Below, piece after piece: positions 8,794 through 58,860 of a stretch of DNA of 64,000 nucleotides. The notes under the pieces were generated by a model. It saw only the letters and a program-made list of their open reading frames with translations, did no database searches and was not told where the DNA came from. Source of the DNA: Acutalibacter sp. 1XD8-33 (GTDB lineage Bacteria; Bacillota; Clostridia; Oscillospirales; Acutalibacteraceae); NCBI RefSeq assembly GCF_003612555.1, contig NZ_RAZF01000006.1:1-64000 (forward strand). The letters are read 5' to 3'. A program made the position numbers and the translations under genes. Numbering within the stretch: the first letter of the stretch is position 1; every line of letters begins with the position of its first letter.

Positions 8794-9246
8794 CACACCG
8801 CGCCAAGCGAGGCGAAATGAGTAGGCTGGGTTTCGCGGTGGTGTCAAAAAGATAGACGCTCGCGCGGCTCGGTCTATCTTTCCGTTTCCGCCCCAGCCGT
8901 GAGACAGCTGTCTTTTGCTGCGCAAAAGTGCGGCGAAAACTCGGCCAAGCTGGGTGCGAACGCTCGCCGCTGGCTGGTTCCGGTACTAGGGGTGCTTTTT
9001 ATTCTTGCAAAAAGCACCCCTCTTGGCGGACTCCGTCCGCCAATTCACCCTGCAAAAATTGCGCTTCTCAGGTGTTTAAGGTCAAGACCTTGGAGGCGCT
9101 GCCTCCAAACCACCGCACCCTTTGAAAAGGTTGACGAAACTTTTACGGTGGTTCGGTTAGCTCGTCAAAAAAACGTAAAACGTTCACGACGAACGAAGTG
9201 AGGAGTGGGTAAAAGTTTGCGGGGTGTGGGGCGGCGCCCCACGCTC
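8794..9246 (+). repeat. Mosaic intergenic repeat, copy A
   Basis: Fills most of the 8667-9246 gap between GH78 and the DnaI-like gene. Parts in order: CACACCGCGCC start; hairpin AAAGATAGAC / GTCTATCTTT (8849-8882); hairpin 1 GGGGTGCTTTTT / AAAAAGCACCCC (8989-9020); hairpin 2 TTGGCGGAC / GTCCGCCAA (9023-9043); a conserved block with CTTCTCAGG (9044-9086); hairpin TGGAGGC / GCCTCCA; a CGTTCACGACGA...GAGGAGTGGGTAAAAG module (9182-9216); and GTGGGGC / GCCCCAC near the end. The same parts recur at 15853, 31977 and 35729 with different but compensating stem bases. Confidence 0.8.
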
Positions 9247-14681: not shown

Positions 14682-15155
14682 ATGCATTCCTATTGCGGCA
14701 TCGACTGCGGCCAGTGCTGGCGCGCGGACCAGTGTGCGGGCTGCCTCGCCACAGAGGGGAAGCCCTTTGCGGACGCGGGGGTCTGTCCCCTGGCGGCCTG
14801 CTGCCGGGAGAAGGGACAGGAGCGCTGCGGCCAGTGCGACGCCTGCCAGCTCAAGGACCGGCTGATCCGGGAGTTCAACGATCTAGGCATCCAGGATATG
14901 GAGGTGATCACCGGGCTGAACACCCTGCCCGGCAGCTACATCAACCTGGAATACACCCTGCCCGGCGGGCAGAAAGTAAAGCTCTTGGATGATAGCAAGG
15001 TCTATATGGGAAACCAGGTCTGTAAAGCGGGCAGCAAACGATGCTATGGCCTGGCGGCAGACGAGGACCATCTCCTGGTCTGTGAGTACGGCGAAAACGG
15101 TTCCGATCCCGAGATCATTATTTATAAGAAACGGAGTGTGGTAGGATGGCGCTGA
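14682..15155 (+). CDS. DUF3795 cysteine-rich protein
   Basis: 157 residues. The N-terminal 60 residues have the DUF3795 cysteine pattern ([27 protein letters not shown]), presumably binding zinc or an iron-sulfur cluster. The C-terminal part (about 75-157) is a separate small domain with few predictable motifs. The ATG at 14682 follows GGAAGGAGGG; the frame is open upstream but without a ribosome site. The end overlaps pyrH by 10 bases. Biochemical function is not known to me. Confidence 0.75.
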
Positions 15156-15850
15156 AATACAAGCGGGTGCTCCTGAAGCTTAGCGGGGAGGCCCTGGCCG
15201 GGGACGCGGGCCACGGCATTGACTTCGACACTGTGGTGGAGATCTGCCGCCCGGTCAAGGCCCTCTGCGACATGGGCGCGCAGGTAGCCATTGTGGTGGG
15301 CGGCGGCAACTTCTGGCGGGGCCGCAGCAGCGGCAATATGGACCGCACTCGGGCCGACCATATGGGGATGCTGGCCACGGTGATCAACGCCCTGGGAGTG
15401 GCTGACGGGCTGGAGCAGCTGGGTCTCAGCGTGCGGGTGCAGACGGCTATCGCCATGCAGGAGCTGGCGGAGCCCTATATCCGCAACCGGGCGGTGCGCC
15501 ACCTGGAGAAGGGCCGGGTAGTGGTGTTCGGCTGCGGCACGGGGAACCCCTTCTTCTCCACGGACACCGGCGCGGCCCTGCGGGCGGCGGAGATCGAGGC
15601 GGATATCATCCTGAAGGCTACCATGGTGGATGGCGTCTACGACCGGGACCCCAAGAAATACAACAACGCCCACAAGTATGAGACTCTGACCTTTATGGAG
15701 GTTCTGAACCAGAATCTTGCGGTGATGGACATGACCGCCGCCTCCTTCTGCAAGGACCGGGGGATCCCTTGGCTGGTGTTCAGCATAGAGGACCCGGAGA
15801 ACATCGTGCGGGCCGTCACCGGAGAAGCCGTAGGCACACTGGTGCGGTAA
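15146..15850 (+). CDS. pyrH: UMP kinase
   Basis: 234 residues. Amino-acid-kinase fold with [10 protein letters not shown] at the N-terminus, [10 protein letters not shown], the [13 protein letters not shown] segment and [10 protein letters not shown]. It phosphorylates UMP to UDP with ATP, feeding RNA, DNA and cell-wall precursor synthesis. Bacterial UMP kinases are hexameric and cytosolic. Its start lies inside the end of the DUF3795 gene, so the two are translationally coupled. The conserved partner frr follows, but only after the 792-bp repeat-filled gap. Confidence 0.95.
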
Positions 15851-15852
15851 GG

Positions 15853-16556
15853 TCGTGGGACGTAAGGTCTTGGGGACTCTGTCTCGCCTGCCGGCTCGGT
15901 CGGCTCGCAGCATGTCTGCCACTGGCAGACGCTCACCCCCAAACCCCTGCAACCTTTGATAAAGGTAAGACTTCGTAGAACGAAGTCTACGAAACTTTTA
16001 CCCACTCCTCGCTTTGCTCGTCGTGAACGTTTTAAATGTTTTGACGAGCTAACCTAACAACCGTAAAAGTTTTGGCCGAGCTTTTTCAAAAGCTCGCAGG
16101 GTGTGGGACGGAGTCCCACGGTGTTGCCCTTGACCTTAACGCCTGAGAAGCGCATTTTTTGAAGGTGAATTGGCGCGCAGCGCCAAGAGGGAACTTTTTG
16201 CAAGAAAAAAAGTTCCCTAGTTCCGGAGTAAGCCAGCGGCAAACGTTCGCACCCAGCTTTGCAGAGTTTTGCGGAGCAAAACTCATGTCACACGGCGAAA
16301 ACCGGCTAGCTCCTTACGCCAATGGTCGCGCCGTGTGCCCCGCTCGCATTTTGCGGCTCGCCGCAAAATGGCCGTGGGCAAACGGGCCTTGCCCGTTTGC
16401 CCGGCGGTTCGTCCTACGGACGAACCCGAGCGGGGTGGATGCGGAGAAAGCCATCTGAGCGCACGGGCGTACCAGACTTGGCAGAGTTTTCCGTAGGAAA
16501 ACTCATGACACACCGAGAAACCCAGCTTGTGCCTCGCACATATTAGGCGCGGTGTG
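15853..16556 (-). repeat. Mosaic intergenic repeat, copy B (largest)
   Basis: Fills the 792-bp gap between pyrH and frr. It reads on the minus strand relative to copy A. It contains hairpin 2 TTGGCGC / GCGCCAA (16170-16186), hairpin 1 AGGGAACTTTTT / AAAAAGTTCCCT (16188-16218), the conserved block (16129-16169), GTGGGAC / GTCCCAC (16103-16119), and the GTCTGCCA/TGGCAGAC module near 15915. The right half is a divergent tandem duplication: GAGTTTTGC / GCAAAACTC at 16272-16294 and GAGTTTTCC / GGAAAACTC at 16483-16503, with the three-hairpin figure (16338-16435) between them. It ends in GGCGCGGTGTG, the counterpart of the start of copy A. Bases 16557-16642 are AT-rich leader of frr. Confidence 0.78.
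16338..16435. repeat. Three-hairpin, four-way-junction figure (copy 1)
   Basis: A perfect 9-bp outer stem, CCCCGCTCG (16338-16346) / CGAGCGGGG (16427-16435), encloses three perfect hairpins: CATTTTGCGG / CCGCAAAATG (16347-16370), GGGCAAACGGGC / GCCCGTTTGCCC (16376-16402) and GGTTCGTCC / GGACGAACC (16406-16426). Only five and three bases separate the inner stems. The same architecture with unrelated sequence occurs at 21640 and 58582. Confidence 0.8.
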
Positions 16557-16642
16557 CTGAAATCTGGACGCACTAGTGCGCCCCAAAAACCCCCATATAA
16601 AATAATTAAAAGGAAAATAAATATAAAGAAAGGAAGAGAACC

Positions 16643-17206
16643 ATGCCGGAAATGAAAGAAGTATTCGAGAAAGCGGAGAGCAAGATGAAGAAGGCCATCG
16701 GCCATTTGCAGGAGGAGTACGCGGCCATTCGGGCGGGGCGGGCCAATCCCGCCGTGCTGGACCGGATTATGGTGAACTACTACGACACCCCCACGCCCAT
16801 CAACCAGCTGGCCGCCGTAGCGGTGACGGAGGCCCGGGTGCTCACCATCCAGCCCTGGGACGCCTCTGTGCTGCGAGGCATCGAGAAGGCTATCCAGACC
16901 TCCGACCTGGGTGTGAACCCCCAGAATGACGGCAAAATCATCCGCCTGGTGTTCCCCCCGCTGAATGAGGAGCGCCGCCGGGAGCTGGTGAAGGAGACCA
17001 GCAAGCTGGCCGAGGAGGCCAAGGTCGCGGTGCGCTCCATCCGCCGGGACGCCATTGAGAAGCTGAAGGATATGAAGAAAAAGTCCGAGATTACGGAGGA
17101 TGACCTGAAACAGGCGGAGAAAAAGACCCAGGATCTTACGGATAAATACGTGAAGAACGCCGACGCCTGCGCTGCGGACAAGGAAAAGGAAATTCTGGAA
17201 ATCTGA
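16643..17206 (+). CDS. frr: Ribosome recycling factor
   Basis: 187 residues, the standard size. The three-helix-bundle domain contains EYAAIRAGRANPAVLD and VKETSKLAEEAKVAVRSIRRDA; the hinge and second domain contain TPINQLAAV and ARVLTIQPWD. With EF-G it splits post-termination ribosomes. The ATG follows AAGGAAGAG. uppS starts 21 bases downstream. In most Firmicutes pyrH directly precedes frr; here the repeat copy B separates them. Confidence 0.96.
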   Translation: MPEMKEVFEKAESKMKKAIGHLQEEYAAIRAGRANPAVLDRIMVNYYDTPTPINQLAAVAVTEARVLTIQPWDASVLRGIEKAIQTSDLGVNPQNDGKIIRLVFPPLNEERRRELVKETSKLAEEAKVAVRSIRRDAIEKLKDMKKKSEITEDDLKQAEKKTQDLTDKYVKNADACAADKEKEILEI

Positions 17207-19394: not shown

Positions 19395-20551
19395 AAATGA
19401 TTTCGATTTTAGGCTCCACAGGCTCTATCGGCACCCAGGCTCTGGAGGTGCTGGAGGGGTTGAAGGGCACGGAATGGGAGTGCCGGGTCGCCGTGCTGGC
19501 GGCTCATTCCAATGTGGAGCTTTTAGAGCGGCAGATCCGAGCGGTCCGGCCGCAGGCCGCGGCCCTTTTTGACCCCGCCGCCGCTAAGGACCTCCGGGAA
19601 CGCACCCGGGACCTGGGCCTGCCGGTGCTCTCCGGGATGGAAGGGCTCTGCCAGGCGGCTTCTTGGGAAGGGGCGGACCTGGTGCTGAACGCCGTGGTGG
19701 GCATGGTGGGCCTGGAACCCACATTGAACGCTATCGCCGCAGGAAAGGACGTGGCTCTGGCCAATAAGGAGACGCTGGTGGCGGGGGGCGCGCTGGTAAT
19801 GGAAGCGGCGCGGAAGCATTCCGTGTCCATTCTGCCGGTGGACAGCGAGCACTCGGCCATATTTCAGTGCCTGCGGGGGAACAATGAAAATCAGGTGGAG
19901 AAAATTCTGCTCACCGCCTCGGGCGGACCCTTCTTTGGCCGTAGCCGCAGGGAGCTGGAATCGGTGACGCCCAAAGAGGCCCTGGCCCACCCCAACTGGT
20001 CCATGGGGGCCAAGGTGACCATCGATTCCGCCACCATGATGAACAAGGGCCTGGAGGTCATGGAGGCTTCCTGGCTTTTTGCCGTACCGCCGGAGAAAAT
20101 CCAGGTGGTGGTCCACCGGGAGAGCATCGTCCACTCCATGGTGGAATTTCTGGACCACGGGATCATTGCCCAGCTGGGCACGCCGGATATGCGCCTGCCC
20201 ATCCAGTACGCCCTGACCTATCCCCGCCGGGTCCCCGGCCCTATGAAGGAGCTGGACCTGTTCGCCCTGGGAAAGCTCACCTTCTATCCCCCGGAGCGGG
20301 AGGCGTTCCCCTGCCTGGACATCGCGGTGGAGGCATTGAAGCGGGGCGGGCTGGTCCCTGCCGCCGTGAACGGGGCCAACGAGCAGGCCGTGGGGGCGTT
20401 CCTGCGGGGGGAGATCGGATTTTTGGAGATCCCGGCTCTGGTAGAGGAGGCCTCGGTGCGCCAGAAGGCGGATTCCCCTGTTAGTCTGGAGGCAGTCCTA
20501 GAGGCGGACCGGGCTGCACGAGAATTTGTGGATTCGAAACGAAGGAGATGA
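19391..20551 (+). CDS. dxr: 1-deoxy-D-xylulose-5-phosphate reductoisomerase
   Basis: 386 residues. The NADPH-binding GSTGSIGTQ lies at the N-terminus, followed by NALVGMVGLEPT-like sequence, ANKETLVAGG, PVDSEHSAIFQCL, the catalytic-loop region SGGPFF and MGAKVTIDSATMMNKGLEVMEA. It catalyses the second step of the MEP pathway. The start at 19391 overlaps the GNAT stop; a second ATG two codons later (19397) is also possible. Terpenoid supply genes uppS and ispG are in the same block. Confidence 0.95.
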   Translation: MKMISILGSTGSIGTQALEVLEGLKGTEWECRVAVLAAHSNVELLERQIRAVRPQAAALFDPAAAKDLRERTRDLGLPVLSGMEGLCQAASWEGADLVLNAVVGMVGLEPTLNAIAAGKDVALANKETLVAGGALVMEAARKHSVSILPVDSEHSAIFQCLRGNNENQVEKILLTASGGPFFGRSRRELESVTPKEALAHPNWSMGAKVTIDSATMMNKGLEVMEASWLFAVPPEKIQVVVHRESIVHSMVEFLDHGIIAQLGTPDMRLPIQYALTYPRRVPGPMKELDLFALGKLTFYPPEREAFPCLDIAVEALKRGGLVPAAVNGANEQAVGAFLRGEIGFLEIPALVEEASVRQKADSPVSLEAVLEADRAAREFVDSKRRR

Positions 20552-20555
20552 TTGC

Positions 20556-21623
20556 TTGCAGGTGTTAAGCACAGCCCTATTGATAGTCATTGCCGTTCTG
20601 CTCTTTGGATTTCTGATCTTTTTTCACGAGTTGGGCCATTTCTTATTGGCGAAGCTCTCCGGAATCCGGGTAAACGAATTTGCTCTGGGTATGGGGCCAA
20701 GGCTGTTTGGATTCCGCCGGGGTGAGACGGAGTATGCCCTGCGTCTTTTGCCTATCGGCGGCTTCTGCGCCATGGAGGGGGAGGACGAGGCCAGCGGAGA
20801 CGAACGGGCCTTTGGCAATAAGCCCGTGTGGAAGCGGATTTTGGTTGTGGCGGCGGGAGGAATTTTTAATATTTTCTTGGGTTTTGTGCTGATGCTTGGG
20901 GTGCTAGCTCCTCAAAAAATTTATGCTACCACCGTCATTTCCCAGTTTACAGAGGATTCGGCCACATCCGCCGCCGGGGCTCAGGCCGGGGACCGGATCG
21001 TGGAGATCGATGGTTACGCCATCTACACCGACCGGGATCTGTCCTTCGCTATGGCCTTGGCCGACCCGAAAGCCATTGGCATGGTGGTGGAGCGGGACGG
21101 CCGGCGGATTGGTCTGGGGCAGTTTGCCATGAACACCCAGACCCTGGAGGACGGCACGGAGGTGGTGGCCCTGGACTTTTACGTCCGGCCGGAGGAGCGG
21201 AGCTTTTTCGGCTTGCTGGGCCGGGCCGGGGCGGACACCTTCTCCATGGCTCGGATGGTGGTGGAGAGCCTGAAGGGGCTGCTCACCGGGCGCTTTGGGC
21301 TCAATGAGGTGGCAGGCCCGGTAGGAACGGCCCAGGCAATTTCCCAGGTGGCGGGAGCGGGGCTCAGCCAGGGCTTCGGCCAGGCTGTGAGCAATATTGT
21401 GGTAATGATGATTATGATTACGGTTAATCTGGGGATCATCAACCTGCTCCCCCTGCCCGCTCTGGACGGGGGGCGGCTGCTCTTCCTCATCTGGGAGGGC
21501 TTAACCCGTAAGCCGGTGCCCCCCAAATACGAAGGATACGTCCACGCGGCGGGATTTGCCCTGTTGTTGGGGCTGATGGTGCTGGTCACTTTCCATGATG
21601 TTTGGAGGATTATTACAGGGTAA
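20556..21623 (+). CDS. rseP: Site-2 intramembrane metalloprotease RseP
   Basis: 355 residues. Zinc-binding HELGH at about 24-28 lies in the first membrane segment (GFLIFFHELGHFLLAKLSG), a PDZ domain at about 135-205 (AGAQAGDRIVEIDGYAIY), and the C-terminal NLLPLPALDGGRLLF supplies the third metal ligand. It cleaves transmembrane anti-sigma factors and signal-peptide remnants. The TTG at 20556 was chosen because GAAGGAG precedes it at 8 bases; an upstream TTG at 20526 lies within dxr. One possible client is the single-pass protein at 2147, which is speculation. Confidence 0.93.
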   Translation: MQVLSTALLIVIAVLLFGFLIFFHELGHFLLAKLSGIRVNEFALGMGPRLFGFRRGETEYALRLLPIGGFCAMEGEDEASGDERAFGNKPVWKRILVVAAGGIFNIFLGFVLMLGVLAPQKIYATTVISQFTEDSATSAAGAQAGDRIVEIDGYAIYTDRDLSFAMALADPKAIGMVVERDGRRIGLGQFAMNTQTLEDGTEVVALDFYVRPEERSFFGLLGRAGADTFSMARMVVESLKGLLTGRFGLNEVAGPVGTAQAISQVAGAGLSQGFGQAVSNIVVMMIMITVNLGIINLLPLPALDGGRLLFLIWEGLTRKPVPPKYEGYVHAAGFALLLGLMVLVTFHDVWRIITG

Positions 21624-21639
21624 CGTGGATTCTACCTGG

Positions 21640-21744
21640 CCCCGCCCCGTCTGGCAGGAAATTTTTCCTGCCAGACCAAGGAGCGGACAGGCCGGCTTGC
21701 CGGTCCGTTCGCTCCTTGCAAACGCTTTGCGTTTGGGGGCGGGG
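21640..21744. repeat. Three-hairpin, four-way-junction figure (copy 2)
   Basis: Between rseP and ispG. Perfect outer stem CCCCGCCCC (21640-21648) / GGGGCGGGG (21736-21744). Three abutting hairpins lie inside: GTCTGGCAGGAAA / TTTCCTGCCAGAC (21649-21676), CAAGGAGCG ... CGCTCCTTG with a paired interior (21677-21718), and CAAACGC / GCGTTTG (21719-21735). There are no unpaired bases between the hairpins. The layout is the same as at 16338-16435. Confidence 0.82.
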
Positions 21745-21778: not shown

Positions 21779-22828
21779 ATGGATAGAAGAAATTCCCGGC
21801 AGATAATAGCTGGCGGGGTGAGAATCGGAGGCGGCGCGCCGGTGACGGTCCAGTCTATGCTTAGTACTCCCTCCACGGATCTTCCGGGCAGCGTGGCCCA
21901 GGCCAAGGCCCTGGAGCGGGCTGGGTGCCAGATCCTGCGTATCGCCATCCCGGACATGGCGGCGGTACGGGAGCTGATCCCCGCCGTGAAGGAGGCCGTG
22001 AACATTCCCGTGGTGGCGGACATCCACTTTGACTATAAGCTAGCCCTGGAGTCCGCTGCGGCGGGCATCGACAAGATCCGCATCAACCCAGGCAATATCG
22101 GGGATGACAGCCGGGTGAAGGCCGTGGCCCAGGCCTGCCGCCAGCGGGGCATCCCCATCCGGGTGGGAGTGAACGACGGCTCCTTGGAAAAGCACATCCT
22201 GGCCAAATATGGACACCCCACTCCAGAGGCCTTGTGCGAGAGCGCCCTCTACCATGTCTCCCTTCTGGAAAAATTCGACTTCTCGGACATCGTCATCTCC
22301 ATGAAGGCCTCCTCCGTGTACTTCACCATGCGGGCCTATGAGCTGGTGGCGGAGCGTTGCGGCTACCCCCTGCACCTGGGCATTACCCACGCGGGCACGG
22401 CCCGGATGGGCGTGGTCAAGTCCGCCATCGGCATCGGCGGGCTTCTGCGGCAGGGCATCGGGGACACCCTGCGGGTCTCTTTGGCGGCGGACCCCGTGGA
22501 GGAGGTCCGGGCGGGGAGCGATATCCTCCGGGCCCTGGGCCTGCGCCGGGGCGTGCGGCTCATCGCCTGCCCCACCTGCGGCCGCACCCGCATCGACCTC
22601 ATCCCCCTGGCAAACCGGGTGGAGGAGGCCCTCTCCCGTTGCGAAAAGGACATCACCGTGGCGGTGATGGGCTGTGCGGTAAACGGCCCCGGCGAGGCCA
22701 GAGAGGCCGACGTGGGCATCGCCGGAGGCAAAGGGGAGGGCCTGATCTTCCGGAAGGGGGAAATTCTGCGCAAGGTGCCGGAGAACCGCCTGCTGGACGA
22801 GCTCCTGGCGGAGATCGAGAAGCTATGA
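21779..22828 (+). CDS. ispG: 4-hydroxy-3-methylbut-2-en-1-yl diphosphate synthase
   Basis: 349 residues. TIM-barrel N-terminal part (VTVQSMLSTPSTD, DIHFDYKLALE, KIRINPGNIG) and C-terminal 4Fe-4S domain with ACPTCGRTRIDL and MGCAVNGPGEA supplying the cysteine ligands. It performs the reductive ring opening of MEcPP, the penultimate MEP step. The ATG at 21779 has AAGGA 8 bases upstream; one at 21773 is too close to it. The three-hairpin figure occupies the leader between rseP and this gene. Confidence 0.94.
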   Translation: MDRRNSRQIIAGGVRIGGGAPVTVQSMLSTPSTDLPGSVAQAKALERAGCQILRIAIPDMAAVRELIPAVKEAVNIPVVADIHFDYKLALESAAAGIDKIRINPGNIGDDSRVKAVAQACRQRGIPIRVGVNDGSLEKHILAKYGHPTPEALCESALYHVSLLEKFDFSDIVISMKASSVYFTMRAYELVAERCGYPLHLGITHAGTARMGVVKSAIGIGGLLRQGIGDTLRVSLAADPVEEVRAGSDILRALGLRRGVRLIACPTCGRTRIDLIPLANRVEEALSRCEKDITVAVMGCAVNGPGEAREADVGIAGGKGEGLIFRKGEILRKVPENRLLDELLAEIEKL

Positions 22829-31976: not shown

Positions 31977-32475
31977 TATGGGCGCGTGAGTGCGCGCGGA
32001 GGCTCGTTGCGGAGCACAGGTCCGGGCGGGCGTTTTGGCTGGGAAGCTGCGCCCAGAGCTGGCGGTTCCGGTTTCCAGGGGTGCTTTTTATTCTTGCAAA
32101 AAGCACCCCTCTTGCCAGGCTTCGCCTGTCAATTCACCCCGCAAAAATTGCGTTTCTCAGGAGTTTAAGGACAAAGACCTTGAGGGCTGCGCGAGTCTCG
32201 CCTGCCGGCTCGGTCGGTTCGCGGCGTGTCTGCCACTGGCAGACGCTCACCCCTCAAACTCCCCGCCAGCTTAAGACCAGCTGGACCGGTCAATGTTGTT
32301 CCGTAAGACGTTCACGACGAGCAAAGCGAGGAGTGGGTAAAAGTTTTTGAGACTTACCGAAGGTAACGTCTTAAACTTCTTTTCAAAAAGTTTGTGGGGT
32401 TTGGGGGCGACAATCGCCTGTGGCGATTTCCCGTCGCCGACCGAAGCGGCAGCTGAGACAACCCCAAGGTCTTAA
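31977..32475 (+). repeat. Mosaic intergenic repeat, copy C, inside the his operon
   Basis: Starts ATATGGGCGCGTGAGTGCGC, a boundary shared with copy D. Then hairpin 1 GGGGTGCTTTTT / AAAAAGCACCCC (32078-32109), hairpin 2 TTGCCAGGC / GCCTGTCAA with one mismatch (32112-32132), the conserved block (32133-32176), TTGAGGG ... CCCTCAA enclosing GTCTGCCA / TGGCAGAC, the CGTTCACGACGAGC...GAGGAGTGGG module, and GACTTACC / GGTAACGTC (32361-32381). It fills the 31963-32497 gap. Confidence 0.8.
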
Positions 32476-53306: not shown

Positions 53307-53506
53307 AGAAGCTGTACCGATAGGATTTGCGTTAACTATACTTTCTGAGAGACAAGTGGCTGCGCACACGATCTCTCAAAAAGTATACGATTTTCGAGCA
53401 AATACAGTTAGGAGCAGCAATATGGCGATTGGCCAGTTTTCACAACGCCGCTTCCCGGCTGAATTTGCCGGAAAGGGGAATACAAACGCCTATTGGTACA
53501 GCTTCT
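53307..53506 (+). mobile_element. MITE-like element, short form
   Basis: 200 bp with terminal inverted repeats AGAAGCTGTACCGATAGG (53307-53324) and CCTATTGGTACAGCTTCT (53489-53506), one mismatch in 18. An internal inverted pair TATACTTTCTGAGAGA / TCTCTCAAAAAGTATA is present. Non-coding. The copy at 58555-58860 is the same element with 106 extra bases, and a degenerate reverse copy lies at 5125. Confidence 0.82.
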
Positions 53507-57323: not shown

Positions 57324-58529
57324 TTACTCTTCCCGCTGGAACTGTTTCCAGGGAGTCGCCCACAGCAGACAGACCGCCATGCCTGCCAGCGAAATTACAG
57401 GCCAGGAGGCAATGACTGTTCTCCAGCCGGACAGCTCTGCTGCGGCGGCGAAGCCATAAGTGGACAGAGCGCTGCCCACATAACTGAAGGTGTTCAGCAG
57501 CCCGGAAAACAAGGAGACGCGGCCGAACCGCTGAAAATGCGCGGGAAGCACGCAAATTAGGATGAGGTTGACTCCGTGCATGCAGCCGGTGAGCAGCGCG
57601 CATAGTCCTACGGAAAGGGCAAAATGGGAACTTGGGAACAGGAACAGCAGCAGCCCAAACAGCGCTCCTGAGCCAAACAGCACTCCCGCGCAGACCAGGG
57701 GATTGTGAAGCCATTTCCGGTGGAGAAGGGACGCGGCCTGCACGGCAGCCAGACTCATTAGTGGCAAAGCCGCGCCGGAAAGGATGGAGAAGCTGCTGCC
57801 CAATTGATAAGTCTGGTTGATATAGACCGGCGTCCAGGTAGTGATGCCGTCCCGGAGGATGCCTTGTAGAATAATGGTGAGAAAAATAAACCATACCATT
57901 GGCAGTTGAAGAAGGGGGGTACTCCCTTTGGATGAGGAGAAGGTTCGCTTTTGGGGGGAATCCGGGATCATCGGACACCTGATCCATAAGACCCCAACAA
58001 TGACCGCCGCGCAGAGAGCCGCTCCCAAGAACACGCTCTCCGCCCCCCAGAGGGAGATCAGGACAGGGGCTCCAAGATACAGGGCGATATTTCCCATTGA
58101 ACCACCCCAGGTAACCGCCACAACAGCCTTTTCATAGAGTTCCCCGGCAAAGAGATAAGCCATCAGCCGCACAAGGGGAGGCCACAAAAAGGCCTGGGCC
58201 ATTCCATTTATGCACCAGAAGACAAGCATAAGCCAGGGCGCGCGGCAGAAAATCATGCTAAGATTCATCAGCGCGGTAACGGTTAAGCCCATCAGAATCA
58301 GCTTTTTGGGTTGGAAGCGGTCGCCTAGATACCCGCTGGCCAGTTGGCCGCTCCCATAGGCGATCAGACTGCCGGTAGCGGTCAGGGCCAGGGTGGACTG
58401 AGCCAATCCGGTTTGCCGAACCAGTTCGGCAATGACCACGTTATAGCTGTTGCGTGTGATATAACTTACAAAATATACGGCGGACAAGAGCAGAATAGCC
58501 GGGCCTTCCGGTGGGAATCTTTTCTTCAT
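57324..58529 (-). CDS. MFS transporter
   Basis: 401 residues with about 12 membrane segments. SGYLGDRFQPKKLILMG is the loop 2-3 MFS signature; the start AVYFVSYITRNSYNVVIAELV resembles the organophosphate/sugar-phosphate antiporter branch. The substrate is probably a sugar or sugar phosphate, by context with GH38 and PHP. The start was set at 58529. The frame stays open into the MITE-like element upstream, which could add up to 35 residues but offers no better ribosome site. Confidence 0.85.
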   Translation of the reverse strand: MKKRFPPEGPAILLLSAVYFVSYITRNSYNVVIAELVRQTGLAQSTLALTATGSLIAYGSGQLASGYLGDRFQPKKLILMGLTVTALMNLSMIFCRAPWLMLVFWCINGMAQAFLWPPLVRLMAYLFAGELYEKAVVAVTWGGSMGNIALYLGAPVLISLWGAESVFLGAALCAAVIVGVLWIRCPMIPDSPQKRTFSSSKGSTPLLQLPMVWFIFLTIILQGILRDGITTWTPVYINQTYQLGSSFSILSGAALPLMSLAAVQAASLLHRKWLHNPLVCAGVLFGSGALFGLLLFLFPSSHFALSVGLCALLTGCMHGVNLILICVLPAHFQRFGRVSLFSGLLNTFSYVGSALSTYGFAAAAELSGWRTVIASWPVISLAGMAVCLLWATPWKQFQREE

Positions 58530-58554
58530 GGCGATATGCGCTTTCTGTGGTTTC

Positions 58555-58860
58555 AGAAGCTGTACCGATAGGATTTGTGTCATAGTAAACACACTTGAAA
58601 ATCGGTATATACCGATTTTCAAGTTAGGCGGCACAGCGGTTGCTCGCCGCCTGGTTCAAAAGAGGTATACCTCTTTTGAACTGCGTTAACTATACTTTCT
58701 GAGAGACAAGTGGCTGCGCACACGATCTCTCAAAAAGTATACGATTTTCGAGCAAATACAGTTAGGAGCAGCAATGTGGCAATTACCAAGTTTTCACAAC
58801 GCCGCTTCCCAGCTGAATTTGTCGGAAAGGGGAATATAAACGCCGATTGGTACGGCTTCT
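58555..58860 (+). mobile_element. MITE-like element, long form
   Basis: Terminal inverted repeats AGAAGCTGTACCGATAGG (58555-58572) and CCGATTGGTACGGCTTCT (58843-58860). Same orientation as the copy at 53307 and more than 90% alike by eye outside a 106-base insertion (58578-58683). Non-coding. The rest of the 58530-59198 gap is AT-rich, with TATAAT near 58980 as a likely -10 box for the DUF5054 gene and a 210-base leader. Confidence 0.82.
58582..58693. repeat. Three-hairpin, four-way-junction figure (copy 3)
   Basis: Outer stem ATAGTAAAC (58582-58590) / GTTAACTAT (58685-58693), one mismatch in 9. Inside are a loop-less palindrome ACTTGAAAATCGGTAT / ATACCGATTTTCAAGT (58593-58624), AGGCGGC / GCCGCCT (58626-58652), and a second loop-less palindrome GTTCAAAAGAGGTA / TACCTCTTTTGAAC (58654-58681). 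It coincides with the 106-base insertion that distinguishes the two MITE-like copies. Confidence 0.75.

What the first reader, a model, noticed from the sequence alone, without database searches (positions are those of the whole stretch)
16338..16435. A family of three-hairpin, four-way-junction DNA figures with no shared primary sequence
Three loci (16338-16435, 21640-21744, 58582-58693) share one plan: a 9-bp outer stem that encloses three consecutive hairpins with 0-8 unpaired bases between them, about 98-112 bp in all. The outer stem is perfect in two copies and has one mismatch in the third. Stem sequences are unrelated (GC-rich in two, AT-rich in the third), so the fold is kept, not the bases. 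I know of no described repeat class with this layout. Single-strand-based transposition, a recombination substrate or a structured RNA are all possible.
Basis: seen in the sequence. Interest (0 to 1): 0.82.

Follow-up and report, generated by a model that had tools for sequence, protein, structure and literature searches.

The report
Cloverleaf-folding DNA repeats in a bacterium
Three short DNA stretches that could each fold into a four-armed clover shape are real; two are copies of two unrelated scattered repeat families, the third is a one-off with the same shape, and the shape seems to be kept by events that act on DNA hairpins.

Summary
All three figures are present as described and fold far better than shuffled DNA. 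They are unrelated to each other in sequence, but two have sequence-conserved families. Figure 1 is a 98-100 bp repeat (EL1) with 26 near-full copies in this genome and no full copy in 59 other genomes. Figure 3 (EL3) has at least 33 near-full copies here and copies in 11 of 28 genus-mates; T..A flanks in 24 of 29 copies and five paralogous empty sites make it a RUP/Correia-type MITE. Figure 2 is single-copy. A scan of 1.25 Mb of this genome gave 29 three-hairpin figures (16 EL1, 8 EL3, 5 single-copy) and none in Markov-random sequence. Outside the families, hairpin triples are enclosed by an outer stem in 4 of 28 cases as scored (5 with one masked case), against 0.9% expected; pairs in 10 of 266. 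So the plan is not chance, though the excess of threes over twos is modest. Covariation in EL3, and loop and block inversion in EL1, suggest that DNA template switching keeps the fold. No mobilising enzyme was found.

The parts
16338..16435 (+). EL1 (figure 1): outer stem CCCCGCTCG/CGAGCGGGG with hairpins at 16347-16370, 16376-16402 (flanking GCC/GGC pairs extend it) and 16406-16426
   Evidence: 26 near-full copies in the genome
16248..16337 (+). module M, a separate dispersed repeat that ends where EL1 begins and also occurs without EL1
16436..16557 (+). second M-type module (72-nt core 16463-16534, 75% identical to 16243-16314); its start (tggatgcggagaaagcc) follows EL1
   Evidence: the end coordinate is by eye
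21640..21744 (+). figure 2: single-copy three-hairpin figure between rseP and ispG; hairpins 21649-21676, 21677-21718, 21719-21735
58582..58693 (+). EL3 (figure 3): hairpins 58593-58624, 58626-58652, 58654-58681; this copy has C before and A after, most copies T and A
58556..58859 (+). older repeat 'MITE-B' (ends GAAGCTGTACC.../...GGTACGGCTTC) in which EL3 lies
   Evidence: both ends by eye
58694..58740 (+). 47-bp hairpin insert, absent from the copies L035 and L036; also flanked by TA
   Evidence: read by eye from the flanks listed
15146..15850 (+). pyrH (UMP kinase), gene upstream of figure 1
16643..17206 (+). frr (ribosome recycling factor), gene downstream of figure 1
20526..21623 (+). rseP, gene upstream of figure 2
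21779..22828 (+). ispG, gene downstream of figure 2
57324..58529 (-). transporter-like gene (major facilitator type by its best models), divergent from figure 3; start codon not settled
   Evidence: scanned as 57324-58538, scores below the models' cut-offs; start read by eye

Best explanation
The figures are non-autonomous interspersed elements (MITE-like) that fold, as single-stranded DNA, into a four-way junction: a short terminal inverted repeat closing three near-perfect hairpins. Figure 3 is one copy of a family found in this and related species of the genus that inserts at TA, probably moved in trans by an IS630/Tc1-type transposase (enzyme inferred, not found). Figure 1 is one copy of a family seen only in this genome; it sits at a fixed junction in a larger composite repeat (module M) and lies there in either orientation. 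Figure 2 is a single-copy figure of the same plan. The fold is kept while bases drift because replication across the hairpins switches template: the second arm is rewritten from the first (covariation) and loops, and the whole three-hairpin block, are turned round. Shown here: the folds, the dispersed copies, the TA flanks and paralogous empty sites of figure 3, covariation in EL3, and both orientations of one loop and of the block in EL1. Inferred: template switching as the cause, transposition in trans, and that the orphans arose by the same processes.
For: Copies with sharp ends: EL1 26 near-full copies, matches starting at query position 1-3 and ending at 95-98 of 98; EL3 at least 33 near-full copies here (my count of the list, in which 40 of 181 candidates were scored) and copies in 11 of 28 genus-mates. 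EL3: T before and A after in 24 of 29 copies. Five MITE-B copies without EL3 (in L172, L164, L149, L141, L145) read ..GTT (GCGTT in one) followed by C, C, T, T or G and the rest of the repeat; EL3-bearing L035 reads GTT-EL3-ACG, L036 the same with one more T. Covariation in EL3: 9 pairs with changes on both sides against 2.5 in shuffles, 0 of 500 reach it; slid structures give 0-3. EL1: cells with both sides changed 6 against 1.5, 1 of 500. No RNA-strand bias: G.T and A.C pairs are about equally common (15 and 18 in EL1, 33 and 30 in EL3), which fits a DNA-level process. The third loop of EL1 reads GAA in 13 and its reverse complement TTC in 7 of 25 parsed copies; with the stricter parse (23 copies) 65 copy pairs are related by reverse complement, 0 by complement only, 0 by reversal only. 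EL1 lies 12 times one way and 14 times the other relative to M. Arm homogenisation and spacer inversion by template switching between inverted repeats are described in PMC8604942 (start of abstract), and hairpin creation and loop inversion in PMC8794818 (passages read).
Against: No transposase with matching ends: in 28 IS630-type loci (PF13358, 6 of 30 genomes; many loci cut at contig ends) no site matched the EL3 end better than 11 of 14 bases. For EL1 no empty target site and no target duplication is seen, so its mobility is inferred from dispersal only, and it may travel as part of the M composite. EL1 covariation is weak: pairs with a change on both sides (2) do not exceed shuffles (191 of 500 reach it), and the structure slid by -1 or -2 columns gives more (5 pairs each, 9 and 6 cells), at much lower pairing. 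Loops of EL1 hairpins 1 and 2 fit inversion but do not separate it from plain complement. PMC8794818 itself finds loop inversion alone and multiple compensatory changes enriched, but not single compensatory changes or the two together, and calls its evidence for upkeep of short stems circumstantial. Figure 2 shows no copy and no convincing empty site: its joined flanks score against the G018 and G010 spacers no higher than 83 and 99 of 1000 random sequences do. For EL3 a TA duplication cannot be told apart from the element's own end bases.
Confidence: 0.6

Rival explanations
1. The figures are structured RNA or RNA-level control elements (attenuators, processing sites) in untranslated regions, and selection on RNA keeps the fold.
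For: By my reading the three window figures lie between genes, two of them in operon-like runs (pyrH-frr, rseP-ispG); RNA folds are very stable on both strands; simple hairpins stand in the rseP-ispG spacer of some relatives.
Against: No Rfam match. G.T pairs are not favoured over A.C. EL1 lies in both orientations within its composite. Copies are scattered over many contigs; the genes around them were not annotated, and no expression data were available.
Confidence: 0.15
2. Shape-selected DNA: a protein that binds or cuts four-way junctions recognises the cloverleaf whatever its bases, so unrelated sequences converge on one plan.
For: Non-family hairpin triples are enclosed in 4 of 28 cases as scored, 5 with one masked case, against 367 of 40,000 (0.9%) for unrelated genomic flanks (P 1e-4 and 5e-6), and against 10 of 266 for pairs (P 0.034 and 0.008); four of the five single-copy figures are 104-107 bp, near EL1 and EL3; no unpaired base at the junction of figures 1 and 2.
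Against: Few independent cases, one of only 78 bp; pairs too are enclosed more than chance (P 2e-4), though mostly as copies of two kinds; the non-enclosed triples also hold repeated copies; no candidate protein; hairpin-rich S15_Bin1 loci show no such figure.
Confidence: 0.15
3. The figures are by-products of hairpin growth in a genome that lacks the hairpin nuclease SbcCD.
For: No SbcD match (E 1e-10) and only one weak SbcC hit (E 2e-4) in this 99.98% complete genome, while 25 of 28 genus-mates have strong matches to both; hairpins (stem 9 bp or more, loop 3-5) 26.5 per 100 kb against 7-14 in five relatives.
Against: G005 also lacks both, yet 58 kb of it in hand show 12.1 hairpins per 100 kb and no figure. 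S15_Bin1 and NZ_CANTJS records, of unknown sbcCD status, have 81 and 50 per 100 kb, and the little in hand of sbcCD-bearing G011 (7 kb) and G026 (19 kb) 56 and 26, without three-hairpin figures outside EL3.
Confidence: 0.05
4. Chance: ordinary terminator-like hairpins that happen to be enclosed.
For: The genome is rich in hairpins in general, and two further figures found with relaxed settings lie in other dispersed repeats.
Against: No three-hairpin figure in any Markov-random control; enclosure of triples well above unrelated flanks. Not excluded for single cases such as the 78-bp L145 figure.
Confidence: 0.05

Closest known systems
RUP (repeat unit of pneumococcus) and IS630-type MITEs
   Same: 107 bp, 9-bp terminal inverted repeat, TA target, compact fold with the ends paired, insertion into other repeats or IS elements (PMC2229807 and PMC3049150, passages read; PMC10969869, passages read)
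   Different: EL3 has three hairpins inside a 9-12 bp stem; no IS630 with the same ends was found; other sequence and host. The exact fold of RUP was not compared
Correia elements (NEMIS)
   Same: TA at the ends and inverted repeats (PMC2229807); inversion in place is reported (PMC10969869, passages read)
   Different: 24-26 bp inverted repeats; no three-hairpin plan in the passages I read
REP/BIME/REPIN palindromes with tyrosine transposases (RAYT)
   Same: dispersed palindromes in mosaic composites, like EL1 with M; two Y1 transposase matches over the cut-off in the genome
   Different: EL1 is 98 bp with a closed four-way fold and lacks the GTAG/CGTC tag (PMC3733652, title and start of abstract only); link to the Y1 genes not tested
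Template-switch hairpins (Monttinen and Loytynoja 2022)
   Same: loop inversion and compensatory changes from DNA template switching (PMC8794818, passages read)
   Different: described for rRNA genes; here in interspersed repeats, and a whole three-hairpin block is found in both orientations

Membership tests
RUP/IS630-type MITE (for EL3) | target dinucleotide TA | tested here: met
   T before and A after in 24 of 29 copies; a duplication of TA is not separable from the element's own ends
RUP/IS630-type MITE (for EL3) | short terminal inverted repeat, about 100-200 bp | tested here: met
   9-12 bp ends, 102-121 bp in the 32 aligned copies; variants of 97, 127 and 135 bp also seen
RUP/IS630-type MITE (for EL3) | dispersed copies and empty sites | tested here: met
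   (paralogous empty sites only)
RUP/IS630-type MITE (for EL3) | an IS630-family element with matching ends in the same host | tested here: inconclusive
   one IS630-type locus in the own genome, 28 in 30 genomes, none with both ends matching; loci extend 1.5 kb at most to each side and many are cut by contig ends
RUP/IS630-type MITE (for EL1) | target dinucleotide TA | tested here: not met
   typical flanks GTG|EL1|CGG, no TA
RUP/IS630-type MITE (for figure 2) | target dinucleotide TA and dispersed copies | tested here: not met
   flanks CTGG|...|AAAG; single copy
REP/RAYT palindromes (for EL1) | GTAG or CGTC tag at the foot of the palindrome | tested here: not met
   element ends are CCCCGCTCG/CGAGCGGGG
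REP/RAYT palindromes (for EL1) | RAYT gene next to the repeat | not tested
   Y1 transposases present, their flanks not compared with EL1
Known structured RNA | match to an Rfam model | tested here: not met
   window at gathering scores; three loci at E up to 0.1

The most novel reading that the evidence does not exclude
A class of DNA element defined by shape alone: an about 100-bp cloverleaf closing a four-way junction, reached by several unrelated sequences in one genome, multiplied twice (EL1, EL3), and recognised or protected by a junction-binding protein whatever its bases, with template switching renewing perfect stems and turning loops and whole blocks.
Probability: 0.15. Interest if true: 0.85.

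Novelty: new variant of a known kind. Interest (0 to 1): 0.5.

Why it matters
It gives a natural set of dozens of copies in which the turning of hairpin loops and of a whole three-hairpin block can be counted, so that DNA-level upkeep of folds (template switching) can be separated from selection on RNA. If unrelated sequences really converge on the three-hairpin plan, something in these cells reads DNA shape rather than sequence.

Tried and rejected
Mobiliser of EL3: IS630-type loci checked, no matching ends; inverted pairs of EL3-like ends 0.3-4 kb apart were listed in the stretches in hand, with no clear autonomous element (gene content of those intervals not examined). Mobiliser of EL1: two Y1 transposase matches over the cut-off in the genome, link not tested. 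Figure 2 as an insertion into a conserved hairpin of the rseP-ispG spacer: the G010 and G018 spacers hold a similar-looking hairpin by eye, but the joined-flank alignment is not significant (83 of 1000 random sequences score as well for G018, 99 for G010). SbcCD loss as the cause: G005 does not fit. My early reading of window 53307-53439 as an empty EL3 site (note) was wrong: it keeps one EL3 end and is a deletion. Two further relaxed-setting figures (L138:5440, L150:12927) proved to be parts of other dispersed repeats. Viral contigs (exact patterns, one for each figure) and plasmids (figure 2 only) gave nothing.

Sampling limits and dropped rows: the 782 kb were chosen from contigs with many copies; the 400 kb are runs of two large contigs, already known to hold copies, plus one 20-kb stretch. 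Part of the G022 stretches was placed at known EL3 hits. In one search, 62 hits in 40 loci are 35 elements, 27 of them listed on both strands; for the alignment I kept one strand each and left out L048 (135 bp), L055:412 (97 bp) and L067:1206 (127 bp), giving 32 copies. The flank count uses 29 of these (L055:1505, L061 and L073, whose end bases differ, left out). Loop counts use 24, 24 and 23 of 26 EL1 copies and 25 of 26 for hairpin 3. In one search the script scored 4 of 28 non-family triples as enclosed; for L156 it kept an overlapping triple with a hairpin outside the figure, so that the figure listed went uncounted; with it I count 5 of 28. One search used 5 of 28, one search gives both. 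The 13 two-hairpin figures are five kinds: 6 and 4 copies of two kinds... that is 10, and three single ones, by eye.

Full report
Observation. Folded as single-stranded DNA they reach -49.7, -49.7 and -37.5 kcal/mol against shuffled means of about -22, -20 and -10 (z -10.8, -10.6, -11.05; 0 of 200 shuffles each). My descriptor (outer stem of 9 bp with at most one mismatch, three hairpins with stems of at least 7 bp, gaps of at most 8) finds exactly these three in the window and none in 20 Markov-random windows.

Recurrence in the genome. In 782 kb taken from contigs with many copies there are 20 three-hairpin figures, 10 two-hairpin and 0 four-hairpin ones, with 0 of each in one random replicate. 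In a further 400 kb there are 6, 2 and 0, against 0, 0.2 and 0 on average in five random replicates. With the window (3, 1 and 0) this is 29 three-hairpin figures in 1,246,015 bases, about a third of the 3.62 Mb genome: 16 are EL1, 8 are EL3 and 5 are single-copy (figure 2, L143:11864, L145:6251, L156:15375, L230:12263). The single-copy status of the last four was tested only within the stretches in hand, where L143 shares a 25-base piece with one other place and the rest have no hit. Relatives: G022 2 in 400 kb (both EL3 type), G044 0 in 400 kb, G008 0 in 340 kb, G001 and G010 0 in 100 kb each.

Is three special? Runs of three adjacent hairpins outside the two families number 28 in the same sequence. 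The script scored 4 as enclosed by an outer stem; for L156 it kept an overlapping triple instead of the figure's own, so I count 5. Runs of two give 10 of 266. Fisher P is 0.034 for 4 and 0.008 for 5. Unrelated genomic flanks enclose in 367 of 40,000 trials (0.9%), so triples exceed chance (P 1e-4 for 4, 5e-6 for 5), but pairs do so too (P 2e-4), mostly as copies of two kinds. Both classes hold repeated copies, so the numbers are indicative only.

Figure 1. EL1 is a 98-100 bp unit with 26 near-full copies in this genome, the others 86-96% identical to the window copy. Of 59 other genomes searched, none has a full copy; one (G017) has a 25-base hit. An exact hairpin pattern has no match in the 84,980-species collection or in viral contigs. 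EL1 typically lies between the end of one module M and the start of another; a few copies have other sequence on one side (e.g. L002, L012, L026). M also occurs without EL1, followed by other sequence. Relative to M, EL1 lies one way in 12 and the other way in 14 copies, a few assignments being close calls (L003, L011). Its third loop reads GAA in 13 and TTC, the reverse complement, in 7 of 25 parsed copies. The first two loops also come in reverse-complement sets, but these could equally be complements.

Figure 3. EL3 recurs many times in this genome: the 312-base query gave 109 matched pieces, 33 of which span the element nearly in full by my count, with 40 of 181 candidates scored, so this is a lower bound. 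It is found in 11 of 28 genus-mates and in none of 31 more distant genomes searched. The 32 aligned copies are 102-121 bp. T precedes and A follows the element in 24 of 29 copies; the window copy itself has C before it. Figure 3 lies in an older repeat, MITE-B. Five MITE-B copies lack EL3 and have one base other than A where EL3-bearing copies have the insert followed by A, as expected if TA is needed. A 47-bp hairpin beside it is absent from two other copies (L035, L036), so nested insertion has probably happened more than once. Nine base pairs of EL3 show changes on both sides against 2.5 in shuffles (0 of 500) and 0-3 in slid structures. A scan with a 20-base pattern of its first hairpin gave 71 stretches, mostly in records named Acutalibacter, Oscillibacter or Oscillospiraceae and some under other names; not each was checked for a whole EL3. 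By equal contig length G010 is Acutalibacter sp. 1XD8-36, G001 is Bacterium D16-76, G005 is B59_59_AM_H and G027 is B35_35_AM_H, so the window is from a relative of these (inference).

Figure 2. It lies between rseP and ispG, has no second copy in the genome and none in 59 others apart from a 29-base hit in G021. Of the 18 genus-mates whose ispG was found, one (G009) has no spacer in hand; in the other 17 no three-hairpin figure was found in the 260 bases before ispG (in L079-L081 the upstream sequence does not look like rseP). The joined flanks do not align significantly with the spacers of G018 and G010, so its origin is open.

How it most likely works. The elements are non-autonomous and spread by enzymes acting in trans; for EL3 the TA target suggests an IS630/Tc1-type transposase, but none with matching ends was found in 28 loci. 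The fold is renewed at the DNA level: paired changes in stems, inverted loops and inverted blocks are traces that template switching can leave (PMC8604942, start of abstract; PMC8794818, passages). G.T and A.C mispairs are about equally common (15:18 and 33:30), so there is no sign that one RNA strand is selected. Against this, the covariation of EL1 rests on 2 pairs, not above shuffles, and structures slid by 1 or 2 columns towards the 5' end show more such pairs; and PMC8794818 did not find single compensatory changes enriched and calls the evidence for upkeep of short stems circumstantial.

A host factor considered. SbcCD, known for cutting DNA hairpins (recalled), gives no SbcD match in this genome and only one weak SbcC hit (E 2e-4, probably an SMC-type ATPase, inference), while 25 of 28 genus-mates have strong matches to both; the other three without are G005 (99% complete) and the incomplete G015 and G024. 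But 58 kb of G005 show no excess of hairpins (12.1 per 100 kb) and no figure, so I do not rest the explanation on this.

Verdict. Two of its three examples are members of sequence families, one of them of a known kind (TA-inserting MITE); the common three-hairpin plan, including five single-copy cases, remains unexplained and is the interesting remainder.

Noticed in passing
genome G000 and G005 against 28 genus-mates: No SbcD match and only weak SbcC hits in the window's genome and in near-complete G005; 25 of 28 genus-mates have strong matches to both.
   Followed up: partly
window 53308-53500: A second MITE-B copy in the window from which most of EL3 has been deleted, leaving one EL3 end.
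   Followed up: yes
window 58694-58740: A 47-bp TA-flanked hairpin insert next to figure 3, absent from copies L035 and L036: a possible second very small TA-inserting element.
   Followed up: partly
window 8988-9021 and 32077-32110: Identical 34-bp hairpins in two places; hairpins such as CGAGCTTTTTCAAAAGCTCG (16077, 35863) and CTTAGGGGCAACGCCCCTAAG (1479, 45173) also recur.
   Followed up: no
G000 stretches, e.g. L213:14766-14822, L155:9541-9597, L169:13885-13941: The GAGTTTT hairpin of module M sometimes carries two extra hairpins in its loop, as if hairpins were added inside loops.
   Followed up: no
L252 and other JAETOQ S15_Bin1 loci: 167 kb of this MAG hold 81 hairpins (stem 9 bp or more) per 100 kb outside EL3, more than the window's genome by the same measure, but no three-hairpin figure outside EL3.
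   Followed up: no
G000 C9:15610-15966 and C24:23610-23765: Two Y1 (IS200/IS605-type) transposase matches over the Pfam cut-off, the second partial; their relation to the palindromic repeats was not examined.
   Followed up: no
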